A stretch of DNA of 43,923 nt from the NCBI GenBank assembly GCA_016210495.1, contig JACQUC010000040.1, positions 1 to 43,923 on the forward strand, in the 5' to 3' direction. Shown piece by piece: positions 6,577-34,069 of the stretch (within the stretch, counting starts at the first letter, position 1; every line of letters begins with the position of its first letter). Position numbers and translations under genes: made by a program. The DNA comes from Chloroflexota bacterium. GTDB taxonomy: Bacteria > Chloroflexota > FW602-bin22 > JACPRP01. The notes below the pieces were generated by a model. The model was not told where the DNA came from. It made no database searches and was given only the letters and a program-made list of their open reading frames with translations.

Positions 6577-7311
6577 TCACTCGTCAGACAATCCGAGCCT
6601 CTGGATAGTGGTTGCCAACCCGGGCGCGGGGCCTTGCTCTTCATCTGGTCGCCACTCCATGAGGATTTTCGATGCTCGGTCCAGGTTGGCCTGCGTGAGG
6701 AATCCCTCCACCAGTCGAGGAACCGTGCCGTTCACTATGGTCTGCCTGTCGCCGAGGACGACCTCGGCAGACGGGCTATCGCAGCCAGGATCACATCCCC
6801 GCAGCCGATGGGTTAGATAGATCAGTCGCTGGTTTCGCGATCCCCGCCAACGCAGCGAGGGATCGTATTCTCCGAGAACGAATGGGCCATCGATGAGCAG
6901 GTCCGTAGCAGCCAGCAGCCGGTGTATGGCGTGATCTGGGTCCTCCAGCAAGTTCTCATAGACTCGACCCGTGAACACGACCGTCGAGAATCCTAGGTCC
7001 TGGACCCCCTCCAGCAGTGCTGTGACCGCCTCAACCTGTTCGGTTGGCTCACCGCCGAGCACGGAGATTCCATTGATCCTTCCGCCCCTGCTTCGGAAAT
7101 GAGCCAGCAACTGACGAACCGAAAGAGACCGGCGCGGCACGTGAGGAAGGAAAGCCACGTTTGCACAGCCCGGGCAGAGAATAGAGCACCCCTGGACCCA
7201 AACAGCATCGCGTCTCCCCGGACCCACGGCGGCCGAGTCCTTCAAGAAGGCTGCCGCGTTGATCGCCATATCCATTGGATGCCTGGAGGAGGCAGTGGAA
7301 AGTCTAGCCAA
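6577..7311 (-). CDS. Radical SAM protein of the activase (NrdG/PflA-like) type
   Basis: 244 aa. GPGRRDAVWVQGCSILCPGC carries the CX3CX2C cluster motif (Cys42, Cys46, Cys49) that binds a 4Fe-4S cluster and S-adenosylmethionine. LGGEPT near residue 85 is the SAM-contacting GGE motif. The overall pattern is that of anaerobic ribonucleotide-reductase or glycyl-radical-enzyme activases, but no such partner enzyme is encoded nearby. It is the last gene of the operon and overlaps the AAA+ ATPase stop by 8 nt. The TTG start at 7311 has GAGGT 10 nt upstream; an ATG at 7275 would begin the protein closer to the usual family start. Its substrate may be an operon protein (inference). Confidence 0.82.
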   Translation of the reverse strand: MARLSTASSRHPMDMAINAAAFLKDSAAVGPGRRDAVWVQGCSILCPGCANVAFLPHVPRRSLSVRQLLAHFRSRGGRINGISVLGGEPTEQVEAVTALLEGVQDLGFSTVVFTGRVYENLLEDPDHAIHRLLAATDLLIDGPFVLGEYDPSLRWRGSRNQRLIYLTHRLRGCDPGCDSPSAEVVLGDRQTIVNGTVPRLVEGFLTQANLDRASKILMEWRPDEEQGPAPGLATTIQRLGLSDE

Positions 7312-9457
7312 GACCGGTCGTACCTCGATTTGCGCTAAGTAGCTCTCGATGCCGCTTCTGATACTCTTGAGGCAGCAGGTCGGAGTATCTCACCTCCATC
7401 AGCGCCAGGTCCTCCATGTCGCGATAGTCGTTTCGGACTTGCTGAGGCGCATACACGTCCAGCACCGTCTCGAAAGAGCCCCGATTGATCTCTACCACAT
7501 TGTCGGTCTGCACGCGCTGCCGGGCCGCTCGCCGCAGCAGCTCGGCCACCAGACCTTCGATCTCGGCGCCGCTGAACCCGACAGTTCTCTCGGCCAAAGC
7601 CCCATAATCCTCCGCACTCAGGGTCACGGTGATCCCCTCAATCCTGTCCAGCTTGCGAGCCAACTGCATCCTCAGTATCTCTTCGCGACTGGGCCCATCA
7701 GGGAGCAAGAAGGGCAGCACCAGGTCGAAGCGTCCAACCCTTTTCATGGCCGGGTCTAGCTTGTCGGGACGGTTGGTGGCCCCGATCCACAGGATCTTCC
7801 CCCGATGGCTCGTATCGCTCATGAACTGCAGTAGCTTCCCGAAGATCCGTTTGGACACGCCGCTGTCTCCCGTTTCGCCGCGAGTTCCTTCCGACTGGTC
7901 CAGCTCGTCCATAAAGACGATGACTGGATGAAGGGCCTCGATCAGCGACAGCAAGCGGCTGAGGTTGCGCTCGGACTGCCCGACGTACATACCCCGAAAG
8001 TCACCCATCTTTGCGATGTTGATCTGCGAACTGCCCGCGATGGCCTCGGCGGCCCAGGTTTTCCCTGTGCCGGGCGGGCCGACGAACAGGATGCCCATGG
8101 GGATGGTTGAGCGCCACAGGGAATCGGCCTGGTTGTTGATGGCATGGATGATCTCTTGCAACCGACACTTCAGCTCCGGGTATCCTGCGAAATCGCCGAG
8201 AGTGCGACTCGGGTCGATCACCTCCAGAAGTCCCTCGCTCTCCTGCCGCAATCGCTCGCGCTTGGCCTGCATCACCTGCTTTCGGTCCAGGGCGTGTCTC
8301 GGATCGAAAGCGGCCTGCTGCACAATGTCCTCGATCCCTATCAGCGTGAGGCCCGCGATGTCCTGGGCGATGCGCAGCAACTGCTGCCCGTCGCTGTCGC
8401 CGTAGTTCTGGAGGTCCAGTCCCTGGGACAGTCGGGCGACCCGGGTCTCCACCATAGAGGCCTGGGGCTGGAGCAGCGGCAGGAGGAACTTCAGGCGCGA
8501 TTCCGTGCTCGAGGGCCGTTCGACGGCGATGTTGTCGATCTTCCCGCCCCGCACCCCCAGCTCGTCGCTGACATCCTCCAGGAAGTCCGCCATCAGGATC
8601 AGGCAGTGGGGGCTGTGGAACAGGGTTGGGGAAACCGACCAGCTCAATAGGCTGTCGATCAGAAAGTTCCGTTCTGTGGATGCGCCGGAGGGAGGGATGA
8701 TTAAATGAACGTTCTCCACGACGATGGCTATCCCTTGGCTCTGGTTGTCGGGCTTCTCAAGCCACCTCCGGAGTTCATCGAAGCACTCGCAGATCTGCAC
8801 CGCCAGCGGCTGTTTGAGATCGAACCTGCCGATCCGGTCCAGCGGAAATCCCCGGTCTTTCAGCGTCTGTCGGATCTGCTGGTCCTGGGACTCCAGCGAC
8901 CACCCGCGTGAGAGGCTGAGGGTGAGAACGAACTCCTTGTGGCGCCGCAGGGTGTCTACCAGCAGGCGGATCCCCGGGCGATATCCGAGAACCGGATCGA
9001 AAGCGTAATCCGAAATGTTACCGGACAGCAGAAAGAGGCGGGCGATCTGGGCACGGTCACGTTCCAGCAGCTCCGTCAGCCACTTCGGATCGTCGGCGAG
9101 AAAGCCGTGCTCCAACCAGGCGCGCTGAGCGTCCAGGCTGATATCCTCTCGGCTGAGAAAGCCGGCGAGCCACGCGGCGTACGGCTCCCCGCTCCGAAGG
9201 TACCGGGGGATGGATGGCTCCGCGTGGTTCCCCGAACGGAAGCCAGCTCGGAGCAGATCGCGCCCATGGCGCTGCTCGATCTGGCTAAGCACTTCCCTGG
9301 CCCACTCGGCGAGGGAGGGCGAGGCCACCATCTGTGCGAACCAGTCCTGGGGCGCCAGGTCCGGACGCCCCGAGGCGGTATCCTGGAGTGTGCTCAGAGC
9401 CCCCGACGCAGGCGAGCCCGCGTCGAGATCTGGGAAGTTGGTCGAGAACGTCGACAT
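7304..9457 (-). CDS. Ycf46-like AAA+ ATPase
   Basis: 717 aa. The C-terminal half is a complete classical AAA module: Walker A GPPGTGKT (460-467), Walker B VIVFMDELD (512-520), sensor 1 GATN (559-562), arginine fingers in RVGRFD (573 and 576) and sensor 2 GFSGAEIEGL. Residues 130-330 look like a degenerate first ATPase-type domain (LFLLSGNISDY, IAIVVENVHLIIPP, CLILMADFLEDV) without a Walker A, the arrangement of the Ycf46 family. It likely remodels protein complexes in the cytoplasm. The ATG at 9457 follows GAGGAG. It lies 37 nt downstream of a coiled-coil gene and overlaps the radical SAM gene, so it probably acts on or with those proteins. Confidence 0.88.
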   Translation of the reverse strand: MSTFSTNFPDLDAGSPASGALSTLQDTASGRPDLAPQDWFAQMVASPSLAEWAREVLSQIEQRHGRDLLRAGFRSGNHAEPSIPRYLRSGEPYAAWLAGFLSREDISLDAQRAWLEHGFLADDPKWLTELLERDRAQIARLFLLSGNISDYAFDPVLGYRPGIRLLVDTLRRHKEFVLTLSLSRGWSLESQDQQIRQTLKDRGFPLDRIGRFDLKQPLAVQICECFDELRRWLEKPDNQSQGIAIVVENVHLIIPPSGASTERNFLIDSLLSWSVSPTLFHSPHCLILMADFLEDVSDELGVRGGKIDNIAVERPSSTESRLKFLLPLLQPQASMVETRVARLSQGLDLQNYGDSDGQQLLRIAQDIAGLTLIGIEDIVQQAAFDPRHALDRKQVMQAKRERLRQESEGLLEVIDPSRTLGDFAGYPELKCRLQEIIHAINNQADSLWRSTIPMGILFVGPPGTGKTWAAEAIAGSSQINIAKMGDFRGMYVGQSERNLSRLLSLIEALHPVIVFMDELDQSEGTRGETGDSGVSKRIFGKLLQFMSDTSHRGKILWIGATNRPDKLDPAMKRVGRFDLVLPFLLPDGPSREEILRMQLARKLDRIEGITVTLSAEDYGALAERTVGFSGAEIEGLVAELLRRAARQRVQTDNVVEINRGSFETVLDVYAPQQVRNDYRDMEDLALMEVRYSDLLPQEYQKRHRELLSANRGTTGLG

Positions 9458-9494
9458 GGCCGTCTCCTCGGTACGAAGTTCCTGACCGCAGTAG

Positions 9495-10115
9495 CTACTG
9501 GGTCTGTTGCTGTTGCTGGTGTTGCTGTTCTCCTATTGACACCGAGGCATCTTCAAGCTCCTGGGGCCATGGCTGCTGTGGTCTCTCCGCGTGGACAGCC
9601 TTCCTGGCCCGGGCTCGCGCTTCCAGGTGAGAAGGCATGGCAATCTCGAGCCACCGCTCCCTGGTCCCGCCAACTGCTTCCGAAGGGATTTTGGGTGTCT
9701 CCACAGGAGGTTGAACATCCACCAGCGGCTGTGCTGCGTGGAGCAAACCCTCCGTCGTCCCGACTTCGGCTCTCTCCGTCGGCTGGCTCCAAGCCGGGGG
9801 CGACAATCCTTCCGGGCACGGCGGTCGGGCCATAGCCGTCGAGATGGCCTCTGTCACCCCACGGTGTGTGGCAGCGGCTTCGGACTCGATGGCTTCAAGT
9901 CCGTTCCGCATGGCTTGCCCCTCTTGCTCGCGCGAAGTAAGGGCCGCTACATGGCCGTGGGCCAGCCGCAACTCTCCATCGGCACTTTGTTGCGCCTTTT
10001 GAGCTCGGTGCATGATCACCCTCAGTTCCCGACGCTTGGCATCAGCCTCTCCCGCAAGCTGTCGCGAAGCCGCGAGGTAACGTTCAATCTGGCGGCAGGC
10101 CCCGTCGGTTGCCAC
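9495..10115 (-). CDS. Coiled-coil protein with Gln-rich tail, unknown function
   Basis: 206 aa. Residues 5-95 are charged and Ala-rich with heptad-like spacing, a probable coiled coil (RQIERYLAASRQLAGEADAK). The middle is Pro-rich (PPAWSQPTE, VDVQPPVETPKIPSEA). The end is a polyglutamine-like tail (EQQHQQQQQTQ). No family is recognised. The start is GTG at 10115 with GGGAG 6 nt upstream; it follows the preceding gene's stop by only 3 nt, so it is translated from the same message. Low sequence complexity makes homology hard to judge. Confidence 0.65.
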   Translation of the reverse strand: MATDGACRQIERYLAASRQLAGEADAKRRELRVIMHRAQKAQQSADGELRLAHGHVAALTSREQEGQAMRNGLEAIESEAAATHRGVTEAISTAMARPPCPEGLSPPAWSQPTERAEVGTTEGLLHAAQPLVDVQPPVETPKIPSEAVGGTRERWLEIAMPSHLEARARARKAVHAERPQQPWPQELEDASVSIGEQQHQQQQQTQ

Positions 10116-10118
10116 TTC

Positions 10119-11039
10119 TTACTCCCGCTCCCGCCGGATTGTGGCTGCCCGCCCGTTCTGCTCCTTCTCCCGCTGTCGAGGGAGAGGAATGCCCGACTCG
10201 CCGTCCCGCTTTGGGTAGCGCCGCTCGACGAGCTCGGCAGCGACAACCGACGTTTCCTTGACCCCCTCGACGAAGTCCTCCAGAACGTACAAACACTCCT
10301 CGCCGGCTAGGTGGAAGGTTTCCACCTCCATGCGCCAGCGCTCGGAATGCCCCGAGCCAGCTTGCTCTGGTGGCTGGATCCGCACCGCGATCTGGTGGGT
10401 CTTCTCCCGATCCTGGAAATAGCCCACCAGCCCGTCCTTGTCAACGGTCTCCCGCAGAACATAGCCGTTCGCTTGCATGGCGCTGAGCGTCGCCATCGCC
10501 GGGACCCGCAGTTGCGGGTCCTGGGAGACGAACTGGACCTCCCGGCTCAACCGGGCGCTCTCTTCTGCCATCGCCTCAAGCTGCTGCCGTTCACCTTCGT
10601 CGCGTTCGATGCTGATACCCAGACTGCGCAGAGAGCCCGTCACAGCCGCGCTCACGTCGGCAACCCGAGTCAGTGACTCCTCGCATATGCCGGTGGCCTC
10701 GCGGATTCCCTGCAACTGCTCGACTACCGCCTGACGGTTCTGGTGGCCCTCCGCGCCCGCCCGCTCCAGAAAGCTCTGGGCCGAGCGGACAGACTCCTCA
10801 GCTTGGGCCAGTCTCTGCTCCATCGCATCTAGGCTGTACAGCAACTCCTGGTTCTGCCCGGCCGCAGCGTCGAGTTGGGCACGATAGCGAGGCAGTTGGG
10901 TCCTTTCGGCCCGAAGGTGCGCCTGCGCACGCTCGAGCCGTTGCCTCTCCACGGCCAGCCGCAGAGCGTTTATCATCACCAGGGAAGCTTCCAGACCCCC
11001 GATCGCGGGGTTCACCCCGACAACGTCTATGGTGCTCAT
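10119..11039 (-). CDS. Coiled-coil protein with C-terminal globular domain, unknown function
   Basis: 306 aa. Residues about 25-190 are a long coiled coil (LAVERQRLERAQAHLRAER, SLDAMEQRLAQAEESVRSAQ). Residues about 200-270 alternate hydrophobic and polar positions like a compact beta-rich domain (GYVLRETVDKDGLVGYFQDR, HQIAVRIQPPE, WRMEVETFHLAGEECLYVLE). The tail is basic and Arg/Glu-rich. No family is recognised. The ATG at 11039 has GGAG 9 nt upstream. Together with its neighbours it gives three successive coiled-coil gene products before the AAA+ ATPase, suggesting an extended assembly. Confidence 0.72.
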   Translation of the reverse strand: MSTIDVVGVNPAIGGLEASLVMINALRLAVERQRLERAQAHLRAERTQLPRYRAQLDAAAGQNQELLYSLDAMEQRLAQAEESVRSAQSFLERAGAEGHQNRQAVVEQLQGIREATGICEESLTRVADVSAAVTGSLRSLGISIERDEGERQQLEAMAEESARLSREVQFVSQDPQLRVPAMATLSAMQANGYVLRETVDKDGLVGYFQDREKTHQIAVRIQPPEQAGSGHSERWRMEVETFHLAGEECLYVLEDFVEGVKETSVVAAELVERRYPKRDGESGIPLPRQREKEQNGRAATIRRERE

Positions 11040-11079
11040 CTCGACCTACTCCTTTATCACAAGGATCTCCGGCTACCCT

Positions 11080-13884
11080 TTATGAGGTTTGGAGGAGTTG
11101 GTGTCTTTCCACTGCCTGAGAGATATCGTGGGCGTACCAGAGCATGCTTTCCTGGTTCTCCCAGGTCAGCCTTTCGGCCGCGAACTGCCGCTCCCTTCCG
11201 GCCCGATCGGCGCGGGCGCTCTCAACCCCTGCCTGATCGAGCAGCCTATCGTAGTGCTGTCGGCCCAACTCGATCTCGGCCCCGGTCTTCTGGGCCTCGG
11301 TGCGGCCTCGTTGTATGGCATCGTTCGTGGCGACCATCTTCCCGCTAGTTTCGGACAGTTGTTCCTGTATCCGGTCGAGCCGTGTCCTTACCGACTGCAG
11401 CGTGCTGGTAGTGCTATCCAACTCCGACTGGTGGGCGTTCCGTGCGTCTTCGACCTGCGTTCTCAGTTCGTCCACCTGTCGGGTAAGGTCTGCAATCAGG
11501 GCGCGTAGCCGGTCCCGGACAGCTTGTCCGCTCTGAAACCGCCGCCGCAAGGTTTCGGTTTCCGAAGAAAGGGCGGCCGCACGGCGAAGGACGGCTGCGG
11601 TTGCTTCCGCAAGACGGGCCAACGCCGTCTGCCCCTCCCCGATGCCTTGGGAGCAGGTCCGTGTCGTCGATTCCGCTTCGTGCGCCCTCGCTCTTGCTTC
11701 CCTGATCTCGCGACGAAGGCGCTCTACCCCGCCGACCTCTGAACCGGGCCTGTCCCTTAGATCCCTTTCCAACCGCTCCAACTGCGACAGGGCGTCCCGG
11801 TGTATCTGGTCCGCCCTCGCCCGTTGGCGCTGGAGATCGTCTATGCGAGCGTCCCAACCGTCGGTCTCCGCGGCAAGGGTTGCGGCCTCGTCTCGACTGC
11901 TTTGAAGCTGCTGGACGTTGAGGTCAATGGCGTTGGACAGCTCCTGCAGCTCGGCCTCGCACCGACTGCACTTGGCCAGCGCGACGCTCAGCTTCTCCAG
12001 GACCCCACGCAACTGGACCTCCAGGTCGGTGGTTCGCAGCAGGTAGCTGGTGTTGACGAGGTCTCGCTGGAGCAAGAGGGCCCGAACCTCCAGGGTCAAC
12101 TGGGTGCGATCCACGTGCAACTGCGTCGCCTGGTCGGCCAGCGCATTGAACTGTCTTTCCAGCTCGACCAGTTCCTCCCCGAGATCCCTCAGGTGCAGCC
12201 GGAGCCGCTCTAGGTCGCGACGCTTCCCCTCTCGCTCCAGCTCGGCAGCGTAGCCGGCAGCAATGATGGCGTTTCGTGCAGCGTCCCGCACGGCGAGGTC
12301 AGGGTCCTCCATCGCCGTCAGGATCAGCGGCGGGACGCCGATGTCGGTCTTACTGACACTCTCGTAGCATCCCAGGGCCCTCGCCACAAGGCACAGCTGT
12401 TGCACTCGCTCGCGCCGCCCTGGTGTACTGGCATCGCCTTCCAACAGCCGCGCCCAGGCCCGGTCCACATACTCCCAACTCTCTCGCTGGTAGCGTTCTG
12501 TTGCCACGTCGAGGGTCGCCGCGAACAACGCCGGGTTGGCTGCCAGGTCGCCCGCCAACCCACGCTGGACGAGATCCCGGCGATCCTCTGGCAGCGAGCG
12601 CAAGAGAGCTTTCCAGGCTCGCTCCCGAACCGCCACCGGGTATGCCTCGTCGGTACTGAGTTGCGCCAGCAGATCTCGCACGAGGCGGTCGTTCGCCAGC
12701 GCCTGCTGGCGCGCCCGCAACAGTCGGCGCTTCTCGCGCTCCACGTGTTGAGGAGGGCGATCGCCGGCGGCAACATCCTCCGCATCCAACTTCGCGACGG
12801 GAATGCCGGTCACGACCGATTCCAGCAGCTCCATGATGCTGTCCCAGGTCTGTGGGCGCAGCGATCTCAGCCGATCTTCTCCTATCCAACAAGCCAGTTC
12901 TGGCAAACGCTGTCGCACCCCCGGCAGATAGCGAAGAGCCTGGAACCCGGCGACGAGAGTATCCTCGCCCTCAGAATGGGTGTAGCGCTCCCTCAGGAGC
13001 ACCAGCAGGTCGTTGGATCGAGCCGGCCCTGGCAGAAATACCAGGTGCGCGGCCAGGTGCAGGGCAACCAGCGGAGGAAGCTCCTCCCACGGGACGCCTA
13101 CGCCAGCTCGTCGGGCATGGGCCGCGTAGGCAGTTCTCTGCGCCAGGTCGTTAGGAAGTGCCCGAAACCAACCGACCAGATTGTGCAGGGCCCGGATACG
13201 GGCGCTTGGGGCATGGGATTGGACCTCGATCAGGGAACGGTAGCCCCGCAGGTGATCGATTGTCACCTGGGTGACCTGACGCTGGGAGTCCTCGATCAGG
13301 TAGGCCAACAGGACGTCTTCCGGAGTCCCCGGATTGGTGTAGGCCCGAAGTTTGTGAAAATCGGCCAGAGCTGCGGCAGCCAGGGCATCGCTGCGTTCGA
13401 GGTCCTGAGCCAGGGCTTTGGCCAACTGGAGGGCTCCGCGAGTAAACCACACCCCATGATGCATCTGCTGCAGCGCCTGCTCGAGGAGGAGAACCTGGGT
13501 GCGCAGGTGCTCGTGCTGGCCGGGGTTCGCCAGCAGGTAGCTGGTGATGTCACTTAGCAGGCCGCGACGGATTTCGGCGGTGCGCTGATCCTGGCTGAAG
13601 TGACAGTAGCTGAGGAGGGATCGGAAGAACAGGTCCTGGGCTTCAGGTGTCGCGGCGAGCTCTTGCAGTCGGGTGAGGCAGGCCTGCCGGACCTCCGAGC
13701 GAACGGCCTCGTCCGGATGGTCGAGTGCCTCGAGCAGCGCAAGATTCCACGTCTCCTCCGGCGGCGCCGTTTCCAGGACCCGAACCGCGTTCAGGGCCTC
13801 GGCTCCTGCGGTGCGATCCCCGCTGACTAACAGAAATGCTGCCGCAGCCAGGACTTCGGGTCTTGCCAAAGATCTAACAACCAT
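11080..13884 (-). CDS. HEAT-repeat plus SMC-like coiled-coil protein, unknown function
   Basis: 934 aa from the ATG at 13884. Residues 1-540 are helical-repeat sequence with HEAT-like units (LLEALDHPDEAVRSEVRQAC, TAMEDPDLAVRDAARNAIIA). Residues about 545-920 form an almost uninterrupted coiled coil (LRDLGEELVELERQFNALAD and onward), like the arms of SMC or myosin-type proteins but with no ATPase head. A CxxC-like pair (CSRCEAELQ) sits inside the coiled coil. The ATG has GAGGT 8 nt upstream; a TTG two codons earlier is possible. It directly abuts the upstream gene's stop. It is probably a scaffold or tether; homology is not recognised. Confidence 0.8.
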   Translation of the reverse strand: MVVRSLARPEVLAAAAFLLVSGDRTAGAEALNAVRVLETAPPEETWNLALLEALDHPDEAVRSEVRQACLTRLQELAATPEAQDLFFRSLLSYCHFSQDQRTAEIRRGLLSDITSYLLANPGQHEHLRTQVLLLEQALQQMHHGVWFTRGALQLAKALAQDLERSDALAAAALADFHKLRAYTNPGTPEDVLLAYLIEDSQRQVTQVTIDHLRGYRSLIEVQSHAPSARIRALHNLVGWFRALPNDLAQRTAYAAHARRAGVGVPWEELPPLVALHLAAHLVFLPGPARSNDLLVLLRERYTHSEGEDTLVAGFQALRYLPGVRQRLPELACWIGEDRLRSLRPQTWDSIMELLESVVTGIPVAKLDAEDVAAGDRPPQHVEREKRRLLRARQQALANDRLVRDLLAQLSTDEAYPVAVRERAWKALLRSLPEDRRDLVQRGLAGDLAANPALFAATLDVATERYQRESWEYVDRAWARLLEGDASTPGRRERVQQLCLVARALGCYESVSKTDIGVPPLILTAMEDPDLAVRDAARNAIIAAGYAAELEREGKRRDLERLRLHLRDLGEELVELERQFNALADQATQLHVDRTQLTLEVRALLLQRDLVNTSYLLRTTDLEVQLRGVLEKLSVALAKCSRCEAELQELSNAIDLNVQQLQSSRDEAATLAAETDGWDARIDDLQRQRARADQIHRDALSQLERLERDLRDRPGSEVGGVERLRREIREARARAHEAESTTRTCSQGIGEGQTALARLAEATAAVLRRAAALSSETETLRRRFQSGQAVRDRLRALIADLTRQVDELRTQVEDARNAHQSELDSTTSTLQSVRTRLDRIQEQLSETSGKMVATNDAIQRGRTEAQKTGAEIELGRQHYDRLLDQAGVESARADRAGRERQFAAERLTWENQESMLWYAHDISQAVERHQLLQTS

Positions 13885-13890
13885 CGCCAA

Positions 13891-15054
13891 TCACCTCACA
13901 ATAGCCACTACGAGGGCCGTGGCCGCGCTGGCGATGATCACGAGGATTAGTAGCGCGTTTTGCTCAATCTGGTGCCGCCTGGTGGGCAGTTCCCCCGCCA
14001 GCCGGTTGACCTGCTCAAGCAGCAGGTCGTAGTCTGCCTGGAGCCGCTTGTGATCCCTCTCCAGGCCAGCCAGCGTCTGCTGGTACCGCGCTGCCGTGGA
14101 ACTAGAGAGCGACTCCATGTTGCTGGCCATCGTGGCGATTTGCGCCTGCACGCTTTGCTGCAGGTCCGCCTGCCACCTCTCCACCGCCTTGCTGATCTGG
14201 TTGATCCGCTCCACGGGTTCGGCGAGCTGCCGCACCGCGGCTTCTTCTCGACGGGCTATCTCCCGGGTGCTCCTGCCCAGCTCCTCGACAAGTGTCTGCT
14301 GGCTGGTGACGAGGGTTGTCTCTCCGCGCGCGATCTGCCCTAGCAGATCCTGCATGACCTGAAACGACGTGTGCAGGTTCTCAGAACTCTGTGCCAGCCT
14401 CGCCACCTCGGTCTTCAACCCGTCGAAGTTCCTCGCCAACAGGTTGCTCTGGTGGTTGTTGTCCTCCAGTCGCTGGACGATCCGGCGCTCGATCTCGGTT
14501 CGGCTGGTCGACTCCCGCGCCGTCCAGGTTGCCAGCAGACCGGACATCCGCTCGCACTCTTCCGCTACGGAGGCTGCCTGGGACGACCATCGCGTCAGCA
14601 GGTCGCCTGCCGTGGCCAGCAGCCGCTCGTTCGTCTGGTAATGGCCGTTTACCTCGGCATGTATCTCGCGGATCGGCTGGACGGCACCTTGAAGCGCGTT
14701 TATCCACTCCTGGAGGCTGCCCGGCTCGGCCAAGGTCATCACCACGCTCTGGAAGGTGCGGTGCGAGTGGTAGAGCATCGTCTGGAGGTTTCCGACCTGG
14801 TCGGCCACCGTTCCCAACTGGTCCTTCGACTGGCCGAAAGCCGAGGCTATCTGCGCCATCTGCTGAACAAGAGGGGTTGTTCCTTTGGCGATCTCTTGCG
14901 CCGCAGTTTCCGTGAAGACTTGGGGCAGCGCATTCCGGGTGCTCTCCAAGGAGCTGACGATTTGCTCCAGCAGCGTCCGCAGGAACAGGCCGAAAGAGAC
15001 CACGGCCACCGCGGTAACGACGGTTGCCGCAGCGACCAGGATAGTCCAGTCCAT
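13891..15054 (-). CDS. Membrane protein with a large coiled-coil domain between two terminal TM segments
   Basis: 387 aa. A first membrane span (ILVAAATVVTAVAVVSFGLF) starts at residue 5 and a second (ALLILVIIASAATALVVAIV) closes the protein. The 330 residues between are predicted helical coiled coil in the style of methyl-accepting chemotaxis proteins and RmuC-like proteins (QMAQIASAFGQSKDQLGTVA, EVARLAQSSENLHTSFQVMQ). No methylation hairpin or HAMP motif is evident. The ATG at 15054 has AAGGA and GAGGTG just upstream. With both ends in the membrane it would form a bow-shaped anchor, probably cytoplasmic, for the soluble coiled-coil partners. No family assigned. Confidence 0.78.
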   Translation of the reverse strand: MDWTILVAAATVVTAVAVVSFGLFLRTLLEQIVSSLESTRNALPQVFTETAAQEIAKGTTPLVQQMAQIASAFGQSKDQLGTVADQVGNLQTMLYHSHRTFQSVVMTLAEPGSLQEWINALQGAVQPIREIHAEVNGHYQTNERLLATAGDLLTRWSSQAASVAEECERMSGLLATWTARESTSRTEIERRIVQRLEDNNHQSNLLARNFDGLKTEVARLAQSSENLHTSFQVMQDLLGQIARGETTLVTSQQTLVEELGRSTREIARREEAAVRQLAEPVERINQISKAVERWQADLQQSVQAQIATMASNMESLSSSTAARYQQTLAGLERDHKRLQADYDLLLEQVNRLAGELPTRRHQIEQNALLILVIIASAATALVVAIVR

Positions 15055-15060
15055 CTTCCT

Positions 15061-17067
15061 TCACCTCGCCAACAGGTGTAGTTGCGGCCGGCCCAGGAAC
15101 TCGCTAAGGCCGCGGGCTGAGACCTCGCGCAACCCCTCATCGAGGGCGTTCCAGTCCACGGTGTTCGCGGGTAGAGCGTTGCGCCCGTTGCGAAGAAGCT
15201 GTCCCGCCACGGCCTTCCCGTGGCGGACGAGTATCAGCTCGAGATTGCGGAAGTTCTCACTCTGCACTATCGGGTGTCTGGAACGCGCGAGGACGTCTCG
15301 GGTGTTGACGAAGTGAGCTAGGACAACCCGAAGCTGACGCAGAGTGAGGGGTAGGCTAACCAACTCCGCCCAATTGGCGCACCAGGCAGCCCGGTCGCCC
15401 CATTCTCTTCCCCGCGACATGGCGCTCTCCGCGCCGCCCGTGACGGAAGCAAGGAGGCGGTAGAACTGGGGTTCTGGATAGGGGCAGGCAGTACGCAACG
15501 CTTCGAACTCTCCGAAATGTCGATCAACGAAGGCTCTGAGTCGTGGCCACAGAGCGAGTTGTACGAGTGCGTCGAGGTAGCCTCTGGCCGCATGCGGAAC
15601 CAACCAATGCAGCTTCAAGGATACCTCGCCGAGGGCCCACTGCTCATAGAGGCGGATTCTCTCCTCCGGACCCGCGGCCAGGGCTACCAGCGCAAGCTGC
15701 GCATAGCGGCGAAGAACATTGCGCATTCTGCTGTCGGTGGAGCTTCCACCCGGGTCGGGCTGCACCAGAAGCTCCCAGTGTTTGCGGACCCATTGGGAAT
15801 AGGGCGACGGCTGTTCCGGCAGAACCCGAATCAGAGCCTCGGTCAGCGACAGGAAGCATCGCTGAAGGTCCTCCTCTTGCGACAGGAGGCGCGGCCATTC
15901 CCCGGCCGGAGCGTCCTGGGGGTCCTGCCCCGCCTCCGATTCCTTGGGACGGGGGACAGCTCTGGCGAGGGATTGCTGAAGCAAGGCAAACCAATCGGAA
16001 AGGGTGTCCTTCCAAACGCCCCTGGAGTTCTTGAGCTCGAGCTGCGCCCAGAGGGGACAATCCCTCCCGTCGCAGTGGCTCGCGAGATGCAGGCGGTACG
16101 GCAGCTTCTGGCCCGAGAGACTCGGCAGCAGCTTGCTCGGGTACGGAAAGACCTTCTCCGTTTCAAACCAGTGGCGTCGGTAGATCACGAGAGCGTCTTC
16201 GTGGCGTCCGACCCGCGCCAGGGAGGCGATCTGAATGGCCTCGAGGTCGTTCCATTGCTCCGAGTCGGGCTCCTTCTCCGACTCGCCCACGTGAAGGCAC
16301 CTGGCGCCTTCAGGGCCGAGACTGAAGGTTGCCGCGGCCTCGGCGGCTACCGCGTAGAGCTCGTGTGCAAAGGCCAGACGGCAAAGCTGCGCGAGGCTTT
16401 CCGCGTCGCTCCCGTGCGCGAGGACAGCGCGTCGCAAGAGCACCTCCCCCAGGGACCTCAGCTCGGGAAAAGCGAGTAGGCGCCCGAAGATGGCGACCTC
16501 GTTGGGATCTCCCATGGGGCCCTGGAGCCACTTCAGCACGGCGTCTCGGGCCAGGGGGCGATCGCCCCCTTCGGCGAGGGCGATCGCCGTCCAGCCGAGG
16601 GCCGCCTGGTGCGGTTCCATCCAATCGAAAAGACGGCGGTGTTCGGTCAGCATGGGGTTTTGGGGCCAGGTGACCCAGCCGCGCGCAAAAAGCACCGCCT
16701 GGGCGTCGCTCAGCGAGGGGCCCCTCGCCAGCCTTCCGGGAAGGCCAGCGGCAGTACGAGTGCACTGGTTGATGACCCACTGCAGCATCGCCCCGGAAAC
16801 CCGATTGCAGGCCTGCACCGGCAGGCTGACGGCGCGCAACTCTCCTCGTCTGCCGCCTTCGGCATCAAGGAGGCTTCGAGACAATCGCCATTCGATCAGG
16901 CTCTTGTTGAGGAGCCAGTCATAATCCCGCACGTAACTGAGTAGTGTCTCTTCCCGGAAGGGGGAAAGGGCGTCAGGGGCCAGGTATAGAGTGGTCTGGT
17001 GCAGGGACTCGCCGACGTCCAGAACGCCCAAGTATGCGTGGCTTCGTGGAGCAGTACCAGAACTCAT
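15061..17067 (-). CDS. Large helical protein of unknown function
   Basis: 668 aa, Leu/Ala/Arg/Trp-rich and predicted nearly all alpha-helical, with an irregular TPR- or HEAT-like texture in the middle (AIALAEGGDRPLARDAVLKW, SLGEVLLRRAVLAHGSDAES, IASLARVGRHEDALVIYRRH). The N-terminus (HAYLGVLDVGESLHQTTLYL) is more beta-like. A Cys cluster (CDGRDCPLW) lies near residue 335. No catalytic motif is recognised. The ATG at 17067 overlaps the preceding ORF's stop as ATGA and has AAAGGGG upstream, so translation is coupled. The next gene starts 6 nt after its stop. It is likely a scaffold subunit of the operon's complex. Confidence 0.75.
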   Translation of the reverse strand: MSSGTAPRSHAYLGVLDVGESLHQTTLYLAPDALSPFREETLLSYVRDYDWLLNKSLIEWRLSRSLLDAEGGRRGELRAVSLPVQACNRVSGAMLQWVINQCTRTAAGLPGRLARGPSLSDAQAVLFARGWVTWPQNPMLTEHRRLFDWMEPHQAALGWTAIALAEGGDRPLARDAVLKWLQGPMGDPNEVAIFGRLLAFPELRSLGEVLLRRAVLAHGSDAESLAQLCRLAFAHELYAVAAEAAATFSLGPEGARCLHVGESEKEPDSEQWNDLEAIQIASLARVGRHEDALVIYRRHWFETEKVFPYPSKLLPSLSGQKLPYRLHLASHCDGRDCPLWAQLELKNSRGVWKDTLSDWFALLQQSLARAVPRPKESEAGQDPQDAPAGEWPRLLSQEEDLQRCFLSLTEALIRVLPEQPSPYSQWVRKHWELLVQPDPGGSSTDSRMRNVLRRYAQLALVALAAGPEERIRLYEQWALGEVSLKLHWLVPHAARGYLDALVQLALWPRLRAFVDRHFGEFEALRTACPYPEPQFYRLLASVTGGAESAMSRGREWGDRAAWCANWAELVSLPLTLRQLRVVLAHFVNTRDVLARSRHPIVQSENFRNLELILVRHGKAVAGQLLRNGRNALPANTVDWNALDEGLREVSARGLSEFLGRPQLHLLAR

Positions 17068-17364
17068 TCGCCCGTTCCCCTTTCGTCCATCAGAACGCGC
17101 TGGCAGCCGGATGGACGCGACCCATCGTTCAAATAATCCAACGTCCAGTCGCGAATATCGAGGGCGCCGGTCACAACTACCACATCCTCGCCAGGATGTT
17201 GCAGTAACCCCTTAGCTTCATCCCCATGGTCCCCTGTCTCGAGGAGTGGTCCTGAAGAGCGGACTACGCCGGAACCTCAACCCACGTCGCTCGAAGGTGG
17301 CTTCTCCTGGTTCCAGCGGCTCGAACCCAACATGGCGGTGCGCCGCAGGCAGCCTTCTCGCCAC
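17064..17364 (-). pseudogene. Small ORF split by a +1 frameshift; unknown function
   Basis: One frame starts with GTG at 17364, 10 nt after the zinc-finger gene's stop, and reads a protein-like sequence (FEPLEPGEATFERRGLRF) before hitting TGA at about 17219. A second frame, open from about 17287 but lacking a good start, continues with equally protein-like sequence (GEDVVVVTGALDIRDWTLDY) and ends with TGA overlapping the 668-aa gene's ATG. Removing one G from either GGGG run on the minus strand (17231-17234 or 17222-17225) joins them into one protein of about 99 aa. It may be a sequencing or assembly indel, a real mutation or programmed frameshifting. No family is recognised. Confidence 0.6.
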
Positions 17365-17374
17365 CGCGTCGGCG

Positions 17375-17533
17375 CTACTTCCGGCCGAGTTGTTCTCGGC
17401 AAATCGCGCATATGCCGTCCTTGATATGGCTAAGACAAGCGTATTTGCCGCAAACTCGGCACTGTTTCCCCGATGCAAACATGGCGTATGGTTCAATCTT
17501 GTCGCCACATACCCTGCAGGTGTAGTCGGACAT
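17375..17533 (-). CDS. 52-aa zinc-finger protein with eight Cys/His ligands
   Basis: Reads MSDYTCRVCGDKIEP at the start and ends CAICREQLGRK. The ligands are Cys6/Cys9, Cys25/Cys28, Cys33/His36 and Cys42/Cys45, spaced CX2C-X15-CX2C-X4-CX2H-X5-CX2C. Four pairs in this order are what a two-zinc FYVE/RING-like treble-clef fold uses, although two consecutive zinc ribbons are also possible. An AAGGGGG ribosome site precedes the ATG at 17533. It is the first confident gene of the nine-gene operon. It may act as an adaptor or nucleic-acid/protein-binding module; this is inference. The clear cysteine pattern makes the gene real despite its size. Confidence 0.8.
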   Translation of the reverse strand: MSDYTCRVCGDKIEPYAMFASGKQCRVCGKYACLSHIKDGICAICREQLGRK

Positions 17534-17945: not shown

Positions 17946-19925
17946 TTATGGTTGCCCGTCCACTTCTCTGGAGTCCATCATACGGCATGCCGCGCATATC
18001 TTCGCTAGCAGTTCAACCCGGACGACCGGGTCGCCCTGAGCCGCAATCTCCACGGCCTGATCGATCTTCCCACTATTGGCGAGGAACTCTGTCAGGGCGA
18101 CCCATGGCTCGAAAGCCCTATAAGCGTGCGTTTCGGGAATCTGGTTGATTATCTCAACGCATTCATTGACTTGCCCATCTCTAGCCAATCGGGTCGCAAT
18201 CGTCTCCAGCGCCTGCGAACGTTCTTCGTGACCGAAGATTCTGCGTACCACTTCCTGCGCTTCGGTTATGCGGCCGGCCGCGACCAACGCCATACAAATG
18301 GATAACAGAGCCTGATCTGTTTGGTCGACCTCCACGGCGATCTGCAAGGCCCTGTCGAGCCTCGCTGTTGCTGCAAGCGCACCGCATATTGCACGAAGAG
18401 CAAGCGAACGGCGCGTCGACTCCTGTATGCCTCTGGCGGTCGATAGTGCCTCATCGATGTCACCCGATGCAGCCTGTACGGTTGCCGTCCGGAGGGAAGC
18501 CCAGTCGCGCTCATCACCGGGAAGTGCAAGCGCCTCGTGCGCAAGTGACCTCGCTTGGTCTAGGTTGCCGACTCTGGCCATCTGTTCAGCCACAGCAAAC
18601 AGCGCTGATTGTCGGGATGACACGAAGGCCACGCTGATGGATCTCGCCACTGTCAACGCTTCCTCAACCTTGCCTGCCTCGCATAGAGCTTCACACATAC
18701 GACACAGTATGAACACCCTGTGGCAATCATCAGCGATGCTCTGGGCAAGGGATAAGGCTGTGACGAATCGTCCCGCAACGGCGGCTGCCAGACAGATGCC
18801 GCCCAGCGCAAAGTCTCTCTGCTCCATGTCCACAAAATCAGGGATCATCTGGGTGGCCTTTTCGAAGTCGCCGACATCTTCTGAAAGGCTATCGACGATC
18901 CAGCGAAGGATGTTGTCTCTATACTCATCTGCGGCCGCAACGCCGATTATGTTCGCGGCATCCTTACGGATCTTGAGAGCATCTTCCAGCCTATCGGCAA
19001 TCACTAGAGTTCTGCATACCTCTGCTAGCGTGTCTCGCCGGGCGTTCTCATCCGTTATCTCCCGAATCCGTGGAAGGACTTTGTAGCCTTCTTCTGCAAC
19101 GACCGTGACTTCTTCTGCGAAACCGGCGTGATGTAGCGCCTTCGCCACGCGACGTAAGAGGTAGCAGCGTTGTGGCAGACTAACCTCCGGTTGACCGCTG
19201 TCGACAGTCCAGACGTTTCTCACTGCCTCGCGCAAGACCGCTCGGAGCTCACTGGTCACTATGGGCGATGTCGGCGCCACTCGTTGGGGTATATCTCCAG
19301 ACTCGGCGGTCGGTTTGTAGAACCGAGAAAAGTACGCGTCGTACAGCTTTTGAGGAATCCAGCCGTAGATGTAATACGGGAGGACAACGATAACAAACCG
19401 GATCCAGCCAGTCCACGATGGGATACGGTCTGCCGCAAGCGCCCTTTGCCAACTTGCATCTAGACGCGCAATCGGACCATCGGTGAGGGCAGCGACATAA
19501 ATGGCGATTACCGCTCCGCCAAAGAGGGCCTGTGCTAACAGCAAAGCGACTTGGCCTATACTCACATGACGGATGGGCGGCAAAAACAGATTGGACACGA
19601 AGATCACTGGAATGCTCCAGCCCCAGGCAACCAGCCAGTAAATTCTAAGTGGACTGCTCCGGATCCATTCGGCAAGGGCAGCACCTTTCTGTGCCATCAG
19701 CTTTTTGGAGGACCGCTGTTGTGGGCCGCCCTCCCGCTCGGCGTCTTCCCGTCGTTGCTCAACCAAATCAGGGGGTAAGGCGACGGTCGCGTGAGTTACC
19801 GGCTGAGCGGCCATTCGTGCGAGCGTCTTCTCCTCAAGGACTTCATGCTGCCCCGCGCTGTCGGCGGCCACCTGGGGATTGGCTGGCGTTGTTAACCGCG
19901 AGCCCGACGCGATGTTCTCGGACAT
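17946..19925 (-). CDS. Membrane-anchored TPR-like repeat protein
   Basis: About 659 aa. After a polar N-terminal region come three hydrophobic segments at roughly residues 95-115, 125-148 and 175-190. A long array of about 34-residue helical repeats follows (SLAQSIADDCHRVFILCRMC, EALTVARSISVAFVSSRQSA, EALSTARGIQESTRRSLALR), each with the small-residue pattern of TPR-type units, running to the C-terminus. Such proteins are scaffolds; the partner is unknown. Start choice: an ATG at 19931 directly abuts GGAG, so the ATG two codons on (19925), 6 nt after GGAG, is preferred. It lies 412 bp upstream of the nine-gene operon on the same strand and may belong to the same function. Confidence 0.75.
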   Translation of the reverse strand: MSENIASGSRLTTPANPQVAADSAGQHEVLEEKTLARMAAQPVTHATVALPPDLVEQRREDAEREGGPQQRSSKKLMAQKGAALAEWIRSSPLRIYWLVAWGWSIPVIFVSNLFLPPIRHVSIGQVALLLAQALFGGAVIAIYVAALTDGPIARLDASWQRALAADRIPSWTGWIRFVIVVLPYYIYGWIPQKLYDAYFSRFYKPTAESGDIPQRVAPTSPIVTSELRAVLREAVRNVWTVDSGQPEVSLPQRCYLLRRVAKALHHAGFAEEVTVVAEEGYKVLPRIREITDENARRDTLAEVCRTLVIADRLEDALKIRKDAANIIGVAAADEYRDNILRWIVDSLSEDVGDFEKATQMIPDFVDMEQRDFALGGICLAAAVAGRFVTALSLAQSIADDCHRVFILCRMCEALCEAGKVEEALTVARSISVAFVSSRQSALFAVAEQMARVGNLDQARSLAHEALALPGDERDWASLRTATVQAASGDIDEALSTARGIQESTRRSLALRAICGALAATARLDRALQIAVEVDQTDQALLSICMALVAAGRITEAQEVVRRIFGHEERSQALETIATRLARDGQVNECVEIINQIPETHAYRAFEPWVALTEFLANSGKIDQAVEIAAQGDPVVRVELLAKICAACRMMDSREVDGQP

Positions 19926-20064
19926 GGTCATCTCCTACACATGCCATCATCATCCACTTGCTGACGGCTCGGCCCGAAGCTTACGTCTTCATTTTGCTGA
20001 GATGATAACATCTCGCTAACAATAAGTCAACTAGGCAAATAATCGATTGGGTGGATGACATAGA

Positions 20065-32539: not shown

Positions 32540-32552
32540 AAGGAGGTGCGAC

Positions 32553-32957
32553 GTGACCGAGCGTGAGCGAATGGGTATGGTTGACGCCTGTTCCATATTA
32601 GGCATAGAGCCAGCCGGCAGCTCCGCCGAGGTGCGTGCGGCTTACATGCAGAAGCTGCGGGAGCATCCGCCGGAGCGTGACCCCGAGGGCTTCAAGCGCG
32701 TGCGGGAGGCATACGAAACCCTGCGGTCGCCCCGCAAGCGGGCCGAGCTGACCTTGCTCGAGCTGCGACACGGGCCGGCGGAGTTCGACCTGGACCGGCT
32801 GCGCGACGCGCCCCCGCCGCCATTCCCAGAGCGATTTGTCGATCATCTCATCGCGGTGCTCCTGGCGGATGTGAACGCCGCCGTCGACGCCGAGGTAGCG
32901 CGAGCGCGGGAGGTAGCTCTTGCCGCGTCGGGCTCGCCCGGGGGTGCTGCGTGCTGA
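32553..32957 (+). CDS. J-domain (DnaJ-like) co-chaperone with HPP in place of HPD
   Basis: 134 aa. Residues 8-65 match the J-domain helix pattern (VDACSILGIEPAGSSAEVRA, then AYMQKLREHPPERDPEGFKR, then REAYETLRSPRKR). The canonical HPD loop that triggers Hsp70 ATP hydrolysis reads HPP (38-40), followed by ERDPEGF. Such HPP variants form their own J-like family. There is no Gly/Phe region, zinc finger or C-terminal client domain; the rest is a short helical tail. The start is GTG at 32553 with AAAGGAGG 6 nt upstream. It is translated next to a GrpE-like and a DnaK-like gene, so the partner is evident. Confidence 0.85.
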   Translation: MTERERMGMVDACSILGIEPAGSSAEVRAAYMQKLREHPPERDPEGFKRVREAYETLRSPRKRAELTLLELRHGPAEFDLDRLRDAPPPPFPERFVDHLIAVLLADVNAAVDAEVARAREVALAASGSPGGAAC

Positions 32958-34069
32958 TGCGTTCTCTCGGCATCTTTCGCCTGCTTCTGGGCAGACCGTC
33001 GCCCTTGCCGGCCTCCGGCAGCGTTGTAGGCTCAGCAAGAGAGCAGGAAGCGCCGCGTGGCAACGAGGATCGGCCTTCTGGCGGGCCAGGCGTGGCCGAG
33101 GCGACCGGGCACAAGTCGGCGGCCACGGGCGACGAGGACAAAGAGACCCGGCGAGCGCCGGAGCTCTCACGGCTGATGACGGCGTATCTCAACGCACGAG
33201 CCGAGGAAACCCTGGCACTGCTGATCGAGGAGTTGGCACGAGAGACGACTAAACAGGTGGGCCAGGCCGTCGAGCGTACCGGCCGCGTGATTTCGACCGA
33301 CATCGCGGGGGTCCGCGAGGATTTCGTGGCTTCGCAACGCGAGCTGTCCCGCATCGGCCGCGAGCTGGTGCGCTCTGGAGCGATCCTTGAAGCCATCAAG
33401 GCGGCGACGGCGTCGACAGCGCCGACCCTGGAGCGTTTGGAGGAGGTGCTTCGCGCGGAGCTGGCCAGGGGAAGTGCCCGCGATCAGCAGCTTCGCGAGG
33501 AGCTGGAGCGGGCGGCGCTGGAAGACATCCTGGTTACCCTGGACGGGTTGGAAGCCGGCCTGGAGGAAGGTCGAGAGCTGGCGAAGACGCTGGGAGAAAC
33601 GCAGCGGCGTCTGAAAGACGCCACCGTTCAGCGCTGGTGGCGGGCGCTGGGCGAGGCCACCGGCGCCAAGCGTCCCTTGCCGGATGTGCCACTGGCCGAT
33701 GTCGAAAGCCTGGTCGGCGGTCTGGAGCTCACCTATCGCCGGCTGTTGGATGCCCTTGCGCGGCGCGGCGTGACGCCGATCGAGGCCGCGGGGCACCCCT
33801 TTGACCCGCATCTCCACGAGGCCGTGGCCGTCGAGCCCTGCCCGGAGGAGCAGGACGGGCTGGTGCTGCGTGAGCAGCGCCGTGGCTACCGCTCGCCGGA
33901 GCGCGTCATCAGGCTCGTCCAGGTAGTGGTGGGTCGTGGAGTGGCAACCGAACCGGATACCAAACAGGGCCGGCCACGCCGGAGTCGTGCCGGCGCGGTG
34001 GAGGATTTTGCCTCGCCAACGGCTGATGGTCCGAATAGCGAAGAATTGAATATTAGAGGTAATGAATGA
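32957..34069 (+). CDS. Long GrpE-like nucleotide exchange factor
   Basis: About 370 aa. Numbered from the alternative GTG at 32951, residues 273-330 match the GrpE head: GVTPIEAAGHPFDPHLHEAV, then LVLREQRRGYRSPERVIRLV, with the invariant G-x-P-F-D-P-x-x-H-E-A. It is preceded by about 170 residues of coiled coil (EETLALLIEELARETTKQVG, ELARGSARDQQLREELERAA) and a low-complexity N-terminus, roughly twice the usual GrpE length. GrpE releases ADP from Hsp70. The ATG at 32957 overlaps the J-gene stop as TGATG; the GTG two codons earlier is possible. Its own stop overlaps the DnaK-like start, so the three are coupled. Confidence 0.82.
   Translation: MRSLGIFRLLLGRPSPLPASGSVVGSAREQEAPRGNEDRPSGGPGVAEATGHKSAATGDEDKETRRAPELSRLMTAYLNARAEETLALLIEELARETTKQVGQAVERTGRVISTDIAGVREDFVASQRELSRIGRELVRSGAILEAIKAATASTAPTLERLEEVLRAELARGSARDQQLREELERAALEDILVTLDGLEAGLEEGRELAKTLGETQRRLKDATVQRWWRALGEATGAKRPLPDVPLADVESLVGGLELTYRRLLDALARRGVTPIEAAGHPFDPHLHEAVAVEPCPEEQDGLVLREQRRGYRSPERVIRLVQVVVGRGVATEPDTKQGRPRRSRAGAVEDFASPTADGPNSEELNIRGNE

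What the first reader, a model, noticed from the sequence alone, without database searches (positions are those of the whole stretch)
6577..17533. Nine-gene operon: zinc finger, helical scaffold, membrane coiled coil, HEAT/coiled-coil proteins, Ycf46-like AAA+ and radical SAM activase
All nine reading frames run on one strand, with overlaps or gaps of 0-40 nt in almost every case (ATGA overlap at 17064, direct abutment at 13891, 8-nt overlap at 7304), so it behaves as one transcript. Four products are dominated by coiled coil, one of them with a TM segment at each end. The only enzymes are an AAA+ ATPase with a degenerate first domain and a radical-SAM protein of the activase type without its usual glycyl-radical or ribonucleotide-reductase partner. 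I know no described system with this content. A membrane-tethered, ATPase-remodelled assembly with an Fe-S-dependent modification step is my reading; defence or envelope-stress roles are both open.
Basis: partly seen in the sequence, partly recalled or inferred. Interest (0 to 1): 0.9.

Follow-up and report, generated by a model that had tools for sequence, protein, structure and literature searches.

The report
Membrane coiled-coil AAA+/radical-SAM operon
A string of bacterial genes pairs a protein-unfolding motor that has one dead and one live engine with an iron-sulphur radical enzyme and several long rod-shaped proteins, one of them probably set in the membrane; relatives of the radical enzyme sit beside such motors, with other partners, on a dozen or so plasmids, so this looks like a new, membrane-linked version of a little-studied protein machine whose job is not yet known.

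Summary
Seven minus-strand genes (17067-6577) run with gaps or overlaps of 40 nt or less; the zinc-finger ORF lies 307 nt upstream and a 39-aa ORF between them is unproven. The AAA+ protein is predicted to fold like Cdc48/p97, with a dead first domain and intact catalytic residues in the second (39 of 39 aligned proteins); at least 46 relatives exist. The NrdG-like radical SAM enzyme falls outside NrdG in a tree. Of 15 plasmid loci of its relatives that I opened, 13 have an AAA ATPase within 2 kb; 5 of 5 NrdG controls sit with anaerobic ribonucleotide reductase. The dead domain is homologous to that of a Clp-type ATPase next to the same enzyme clade (hhalign E 1.1e-8). Against this, other two-AAA relatives lack a radical SAM gene nearby. 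Whether the coiled-coil and membrane proteins stay with the pair could not be tested: of the two searched, the 668-aa protein found only itself, the 306-aa protein one relative on a 3.6-kb contig. The nearest published system (FtsH ternary conflict systems) needs MoxR and vWA, not found here. Function is unknown; I favour AAA+-assisted radical modification of a partner at the membrane.

The parts
17375..17533 (-). 52-aa zinc-finger ORF (CxxC, CxxC, CxxH, CxxC); membership of the operon uncertain
   Evidence: weak zf-C5HC2/Prok-RING_2/FYVE matches below cut-off; 307 nt before the next large gene; own frame second of six
17064..17183 (-). 39-aa GTG ORF overlapping the 668-aa start by 4 nt; may not be a gene
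   Evidence: own frame first of six over only 120 nt; homologues not searched
15061..17067 (-). 668-aa protein, no recognised domain
13891..15054 (-). 387-aa coiled-coil protein with a hydrophobic segment at each end (probable membrane anchor)
   Evidence: coiled-coil family matches only below cut-offs; not searched in the protein database
11080..13890 (-). 936-aa protein: N-terminal half with a weak HEAT match, C-terminal long coiled coil
   Evidence: not searched in the protein database
10119..11039 (-). 306-aa protein: helical coiled coil (16-190) plus C-terminal strand-rich domain (about 190-275)
   Evidence: one relative P0050, 60% identical over residues 150-290; model pLDDT 73 from two sequences
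9495..10115 (-). 206-aa GTG ORF, weakly supported
   Evidence: 0.042 vs 0.033 for the next frame; not searched in the protein database
7304..9457 (-). 717-aa two-AAA ATPase: N-terminal helical domain (36-120), dead D1 (about 125-410), active D2 (about 415-700)
   Evidence: domain limits are my reading of the model
6577..7311 (-). 244-aa NrdG-like radical SAM enzyme of the AAA-linked clade
   Evidence: not searched in the protein database

Best explanation
This is a membrane-linked, coiled-coil variant of a recurring AAA+/radical-SAM module. Shown: the ATPase is predicted to fold as a Cdc48/p97-like tandem with a dead D1 that is conserved as a domain and a D2 with intact catalytic residues; the radical SAM enzyme belongs to a clade that sits with AAA ATPases and not with ribonucleotide reductase. 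Inferred: the D1 ring is a docking platform; D2 unfolds or disassembles a partner, most likely one of the operon's helical or coiled-coil proteins held at the membrane by the 387-aa protein; the radical SAM enzyme makes a radical-based change on a residue that the ATPase exposes, as NrdG does on its glycine target; together they arm or reset an assembly at the inner membrane. The likeliest purpose is a conflict (anti-invader) response, then envelope-stress repair.
For: Of 15 plasmid radical SAM loci opened, 13 have an annotated AAA family ATPase or ATPase within 2 kb; 5 of 5 NrdG-annotated controls sit beside or one gene from anaerobic ribonucleotide reductase. AAA-linked enzymes split from NrdG in a tree, 93.8/82. 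D1 homology to a Clp-type ATPase next to the same enzyme clade: hhalign 95.6%, E 1.1e-8, 196 columns. Plasmid partners include PIN proteins and a 2086-aa protein matching PADLOC models. Published parallels.
Against: No gene neighbourhood of any of the 46 ATPase relatives could be seen, so co-inheritance of the coiled-coil and membrane proteins, and even of the radical SAM gene with this ATPase family, is untested outside the window. The closest full-length plasmid relatives of the ATPase (Aneurinibacillus L109, Paenibacillus L110; 29% identity) and the Nostoc (L111) and Acidobacteriota (L118-L121) relatives have no similar radical SAM ORF in the stretches fetched. D1 of the classical plasmid ATPases is not detectably related. 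Geminocystis (L129) has a clade member with no AAA family ATPase within 8 kb. The 306-aa relative sits on a 3.6-kb contig. Window genes outside the operon with family matches are ordinary transport, regulatory and metabolic ones; PADLOC was run on the operon only. The substrate is unknown.
Confidence: 0.45

Rival explanations
1. ESCRT-III/PspA-like membrane repair: the coiled-coil proteins form membrane-bound polymers that the ATPase takes apart, as Vps4 does, and the radical SAM enzyme is an accessory.
For: Two loci drawn from the Acidobacteriota (L120, L121) carry a distant two-AAA relative directly after PspA and a coiled-coil protein that looks membrane-anchored by eye; Ravi et al. 2024 report two-AAA proteins beside PspA. 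The window has a probable membrane coiled-coil protein and further coiled-coil ones.
Against: No PspA match by Pfam; hhalign of the 306-aa pair against those PspAs and of the 387-aa protein against their coiled-coil neighbour found nothing (few sequences, so weak tests). No radical SAM ORF similar to the window's in those 20-kb stretches.
Confidence: 0.22
2. The radical SAM protein is simply an NrdG serving a ribonucleotide reductase elsewhere in the genome, and its place behind the ATPase is accidental.
For: Best NCBIfam match is NrdG (81.4 bits, E 6.3e-23). Several two-AAA relatives lack a radical SAM neighbour.
Against: Below the NrdG cut-off (126.1); outside the NrdG branch; its plasmid relatives sit with ATPases, NrdG controls with the reductase; 8-nt overlap with the ATPase gene.
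Confidence: 0.08
3. A peptide-modifying (RiPP-like) module: the radical SAM enzyme modifies a small operon product (zinc-finger or 39-aa ORF) and the ATPase handles its release.
For: Two small ORFs at the head of the operon, the 39-aa one with slight codon support; Kaur et al. 2020 predict a peptide substrate for the radical SAM enzymes of FtsH ternary systems.
Against: No codon support for the zinc-finger ORF; homologues of the small ORFs were not searched; no transporter or peptidase family matched the operon proteins.
Confidence: 0.12

Closest known systems
FtsH ternary conflict systems (Kaur et al. 2020, PMC7159879)
   Same: Two-AAA ATPase with dead first domain, a radical SAM enzyme (in a subset), several unique helical proteins
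   Different: No MoxR AAA or vWA match among the window ORFs scanned; the published radical SAM enzymes are described as Memo-AMMECR1-related, this one is NrdG-like
Plasmid AAA - DUF1257-like - DUF2997 - radical SAM operons
   Same: Same radical SAM clade, classical AAA second domain
   Different: D1 similarity not detected; DUF1257/DUF2997 not found in the window; different middle genes
Plasmid cassettes: large AAA-domain protein - PIN protein - hypothetical - Clp-type AAA - radical SAM
   Same: Homologous dead D1, same radical SAM clade, ATPase gene directly before the radical SAM gene
   Different: Second AAA domain of the AAA_2/Clp type; no PIN match in the operon
PspA with two-AAA ATPase (Ravi et al. 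2024, PMC11237479; L120, L121 here)
   Same: Two-AAA ATPase with dead D1 beside coiled-coil proteins
   Different: No PspA found, and a radical SAM enzyme is present
Cdc48/p97, Rix7
   Same: Predicted tandem AAA fold
   Different: D1 lacks Walker A; N-terminal region is a small helical domain in the model

Membership tests
NrdG | CxxxCxxC radical SAM motif | tested here: met
   CSILCPGC
NrdG | Score above the curated NrdG cut-off | tested here: not met
   81.4 vs 126.1 bits
NrdG | NrdD partner next door | tested here: not met
   No such family among the window ORFs scanned; the rest of the genome is not held
FtsH ternary system (Kaur 2020) | Two AAA domains, first inactive, second active | tested here: met
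   (activity inferred from residues)
FtsH ternary system (Kaur 2020) | MoxR AAA+ protein | tested here: not met
   None among the operon proteins or the other window ORFs scanned
FtsH ternary system (Kaur 2020) | vWA protein | tested here: not met
   No vWA match; a very divergent vWA cannot be ruled out
FtsH ternary system (Kaur 2020) | Memo-AMMECR1-type radical SAM | tested here: inconclusive
   Best matches are NrdG-type and no AMMECR1-system model is listed; that such a model exists in the library is recalled
PspA/two-AAA association (Ravi 2024) | PspA/Snf7 protein | tested here: not met
   No Pfam match; hhalign of the 306-aa pair negative
AAA/DUF1257/DUF2997/radical SAM operon | DUF1257 and DUF2997 proteins | tested here: not met
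   No Pfam match; home-made models do not beat shuffles for the 306-aa protein
Clp-type AAA/radical SAM cassette | Homologous dead D1 | tested here: met
   hhalign E 1.1e-8
Clp-type AAA/radical SAM cassette | AAA_2 (Clp) second domain, PIN and large AAA-domain partners | tested here: not met
   Second domain is classical AAA and no PIN match in the operon
IetAS defence | IetS protease partner | tested here: not met
   IetA models match only the AAA half; no protease family in the operon

The most novel reading that the evidence does not exclude
There is a general class of bacterial machine, not recognised as such in the paper listings I searched, in which a tandem-AAA unfoldase with a dead D1 works with a dedicated NrdG-like radical SAM enzyme to change a protein that it unfolds. 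The dead D1 is the fixed docking part, shared between ATPases whose second domains are classical AAA (the window) and Clp-type (plasmid cassettes), while targets and outputs are swapped: PIN-protein cassettes on plasmids, DUF1257/DUF2997 proteins, a contractile-injection-like locus in Treponema, and here a membrane coiled-coil scaffold. ATP-driven unfolding coupled to radical protein modification would be a new biochemical principle.
Probability: 0.3. Interest if true: 0.85.

Novelty: new variant of a known kind. Interest (0 to 1): 0.6.

Why it matters
Radical SAM 'activases' without a glycyl-radical partner are usually left unexplained in genomes (my general knowledge). If a clade of them works with dedicated dead-D1/live-D2 unfoldases, a set of unassigned plasmid and chromosome genes gains a shared, testable mechanism, and conflict-system ATPases, PspA-type membrane repair and radical chemistry become linked.

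Tried and rejected
The one genome-contig scan was given the whole ATPase alignment, used generic AAA motifs and kept 80 distantly related ATPases (best segments 29-38% identical); it could not be repeated. The same with viral contigs gave 28 generic ATPases, and with the N-terminal profile none. Genome draws with the N-terminal profile A2 found no true relative: 0 of 14 (E <= 1e-5), 0 of 398 (1e-10), 0 of 240 (1e-10), 0 of 229 (1e-10), 0 of 304 (1e-20), 0 of 149 (1e-20), 0 of 197 (1e-5), 0 of 150 (1e-5); 4 of 199 from the Acidobacteriota matched weakly (E 1.7e-15 to 1.9e-8) and are other two-AAA proteins. The draws overlap and had no positive control, so they suggest rarity and no more. Chloroflexota, my guess for the window, could not be reached.

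The idea that the C-terminus of the 306-aa protein is a fused DUF1257/DUF2997 looked good by eye and failed: hhalign nothing, no Pfam match, and shuffles do as well (2000 made: for DUF2997, 1215 of 1515 scored shuffles reach the 306-aa score and P0050 has no hit; for DUF1257, 887 of 1828, and 104 of 1828 for P0050, whose hit lies in its coiled coil). PspA homology of the 306-aa protein and similarity of the 387-aa protein to the PspA-linked coiled-coil protein: none. D1 similarity to the Ycf46-type plasmid ATPases: not detected. The 306-aa model gave no PDB match at E <= 0.001 and two viral-library matches at that level with TM-scores by query length of 0.22 and 0.12, which I take as coil matches.

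Full report
What is there. The minus strand between 17067 and 6577 carries seven genes with gaps or overlaps of 40 nt or less: 668, 387, 936, 306, 206, 717 and 244 codons. A 52-codon zinc-finger ORF lies 307 nt upstream of the 668-codon gene, and a 39-codon GTG ORF lies between them. Codon statistics trained on twelve window genes, eleven of them with a family match and the ATPase and radical SAM genes among them, support the 936-, 387-, 306- and 717-codon genes clearly; the 668-, 244-, 206- and 39-codon ORFs come first of six frames by small margins, and the zinc-finger ORF second. The promoter/terminator scan found no more than shuffles. Window G+C is 57-66%. No whole genome is held for the window, and I could not fix its phylum; the best PstB match among 18 genomes tried was 64% in Carboxydocella.

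The ATPase. Pfam sees one AAA domain, residues 456-581, plus a lid. A search with residues 1-415 found 47 proteins including itself among the 7994 candidates scored; the 46 others are 42-55% identical in the aligned part. They come from metagenome and archive collections, and one organism is named (a Rhodospirillales MAG). In 39 aligned proteins, the window included, the second-domain catalytic residues are invariant, and the first domain has GNxxDY with G, N, D and Y invariant where Walker A would be. The window protein lies in an eight-member group (support 0.999). The AlphaFold model has mean pLDDT 86.7; residues 1-31 are of low confidence, 36-120 is helical, then come two AAA-like modules. 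The 50 PDB matches listed are all p97/Cdc48 or Rix7, aligned over 527-697 columns, with whole-chain TM-scores by query length of 0.34-0.53. The sequence profile also ranks VCP/Cdc48-type chains first; A2 alone finds no solved relative (best E 0.14).

The radical SAM enzyme. It has CSILCPGC and GGE and matches NrdG below the cut-off. It was not searched in the large protein database. Tblastn against 72,556 plasmid records found 101 records, 60 of them listed. I opened 15 loci. Twelve are from the first 18 rows; the six of those not opened are five further Moellerella records and Paenarthrobacter AT5, which has an AAA hit 1.7 kb from its radical SAM hit. Three lie further down (Treponema, Paenibacillus M1, Rhizobium) and were chosen because they are not annotated nrdG. 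Thirteen of the 15 have an annotated AAA family ATPase or ATPase within 2 kb; of the twelve top-row loci it is ten. Geminocystis has none within 8 kb. The unannotated Subdoligranulum locus has upstream a 759-aa ORF without Walker A, which I read as NrdD. Five hits annotated nrdG, chosen as controls, all sit beside or one gene from an anaerobic ribonucleotide reductase gene, with no AAA family ATPase annotated within 3.5 kb. The controls were picked by annotation, so this contrast is partly built in; the tree is the independent part. In a maximum-likelihood tree of 21 sequences (179 columns), the window enzyme and 14 plasmid enzymes (the 13 with ATPase and Geminocystis) separate from the five NrdG and the Subdoligranulum protein with support 93.8/82. 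One of the 15, L135, is annotated with a short start and lacks the cysteine motif in that frame. The window's place inside the group is unresolved (53/58).

Different ATPases, one enzyme clade. The plasmid ATPases are not orthologues of the window's: no plasmid match to the window ATPase exceeds 60% identity, and the best-covered ones are 28-29% identical. They are of two kinds. One is classical AAA: tested by Pfam in Paenarthrobacter L122; the others, in Rhodococcus, Paenarthrobacter L126, Arthrobacter and Treponema, are 38-40% identical to the Paenibacillus one, L122 37%. Four of these six loci have an annotated DUF2997 protein between ATPase and enzyme, and Paenibacillus also a DUF1257 protein. 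The other kind has a Clp-type AAA_2 second domain (Pfam in Leisingera, Moellerella and Rhizobium; Photobacterium, Polaromonas and Acinetobacter are 56-58% identical to the Moellerella one). In five of these six plasmids the order is large AAA-domain protein, PIN protein, hypothetical, ATPase, radical SAM. The Calothrix ATPase was not typed. The dead first domain of the window family is homologous to the first domain of the Clp-type group: hhalign probability 95.6, E 1.1e-8, 196 columns, around a shared GN...D region. It was not detectably similar to that of the classical plasmid group.

Results that cut the other way. The best-covered plasmid relatives of the window ATPase (Aneurinibacillus L109 and Paenibacillus L110, 29% identity) have no radical SAM gene annotated within about 10 kb, nor has the Nostoc one. 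No ORF similar to the window's radical SAM enzyme was found in any locus held, the four Acidobacteriota loci L118-L121 included. So enzymes of this clade usually have an AAA neighbour, but two-AAA ATPases often lack the enzyme.

Defence leanings. PADLOC gives a weak MkoB match to the Polaromonas PIN protein, PDC-M37B and DolB matches to its ATPase over the AAA domain, weak viperin-model matches to its radical SAM enzyme, and strong PDC-S37, Hhe and MkoA matches to the 2086-aa protein beside the Rhizobium pair. In the window, IetA models match the ATPase over its AAA half (E 3.3e-28), coil-rich models match the coiled coils weakly, and the radical SAM enzyme matches none.

The other operon proteins. 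The 306-aa protein has one relative, P0050, 60% identical over residues 150-290 and 44% overall, and none on plasmids. Its model (pLDDT 73 from two sequences) is a helical coiled coil followed by a strand-rich domain, without PDB match at E <= 0.001. The 387-aa protein has hydrophobic segments at both ends. The 387-, 936- and 206-aa proteins were not searched in the large database, because the three searches went to others. So the claim that this gene set stays together is untested.

Literature. Kaur et al. 2020 (PMC7159879; section 21 read, passages elsewhere) describe FtsH ternary systems: MoxR, vWA and a two-AAA protein with inactive N-terminal domain, in a subset with a radical SAM enzyme, and unique helical proteins. 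The window shares three of these features but shows no MoxR or vWA among the ORFs scanned. Ravi et al. 2024 (PMC11237479; passages) report two-AAA proteins with inactive N-terminal domain beside PspA; two such loci turned up in the Acidobacteriota draw. Author names of both papers are recalled; the identifiers come from the calls. Searches for the gene set or the AAA+/radical SAM pairing were made, on PspA, Ycf46 and DUF2997/DUF1257. Apart from the two papers named I saw listings only; no listed title or abstract start points to this pairing as a class. The library holds open-licence papers only.

Judgement. Well supported: a tight gene cluster; a two-AAA ATPase with dead D1 and catalytically complete D2; a radical SAM enzyme of an ATPase-linked clade; the enzyme clade recurs with AAA ATPases of at least two kinds, one sharing the window's dead D1. 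Inferred: a common mechanism of unfolding-assisted radical modification, D1 as docking domain, the membrane scaffold as substrate or stage. Open: purpose, substrate, and whether the coiled-coil partners are constant.

Noticed in passing
L123, L125, L128, L130, L131 (plasmids): Conserved five-gene cassette (large AAA-domain protein, PIN protein, hypothetical, Clp-type AAA ATPase, radical SAM) on plasmids of alpha-, beta- and gammaproteobacteria; may be a defence cassette.
   Followed up: partly
L120:7692-11270 and L121:7652-11063: PspA, coiled-coil protein with hydrophobic N-terminal stretch and two-AAA ATPase in a row in two genomes drawn from the Acidobacteriota, in line with Ravi et al. 2024.
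   Followed up: partly
L132:1561-13162 (Treponema succinifaciens plasmid): Radical SAM gene and an AAA ATPase inside a locus with VgrG/Pvc8 and baseplate V genes, a contractile-injection-like setting.
   Followed up: no
L127 (Calothrix plasmid): Hsp70, 1316-aa TPR protein, radical SAM, hypothetical and an 848-aa AAA ATPase close together; the window also has GrpE and Hsp70 genes, but blastp at E 1e-4 found no similarity between the two sets.
   Followed up: partly
window 30272-35781 (+): TPR protein (755 aa), GrpE-domain protein (372 aa) and an Hsp70 of 571 aa that scores below the DnaK cut-offs: an unusual Hsp70/GrpE pair.
   Followed up: no
window 17946-19931 (-): 661-aa protein with hydrophobic segments and TPR-like repeats just upstream (412 nt from the zinc-finger ORF); could belong to the operon.
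   Followed up: partly
window 41251-42207 (+): 318-aa radical SAM protein that matches the later parts of B12-binding radical SAM families without their N-terminal part.
   Followed up: no
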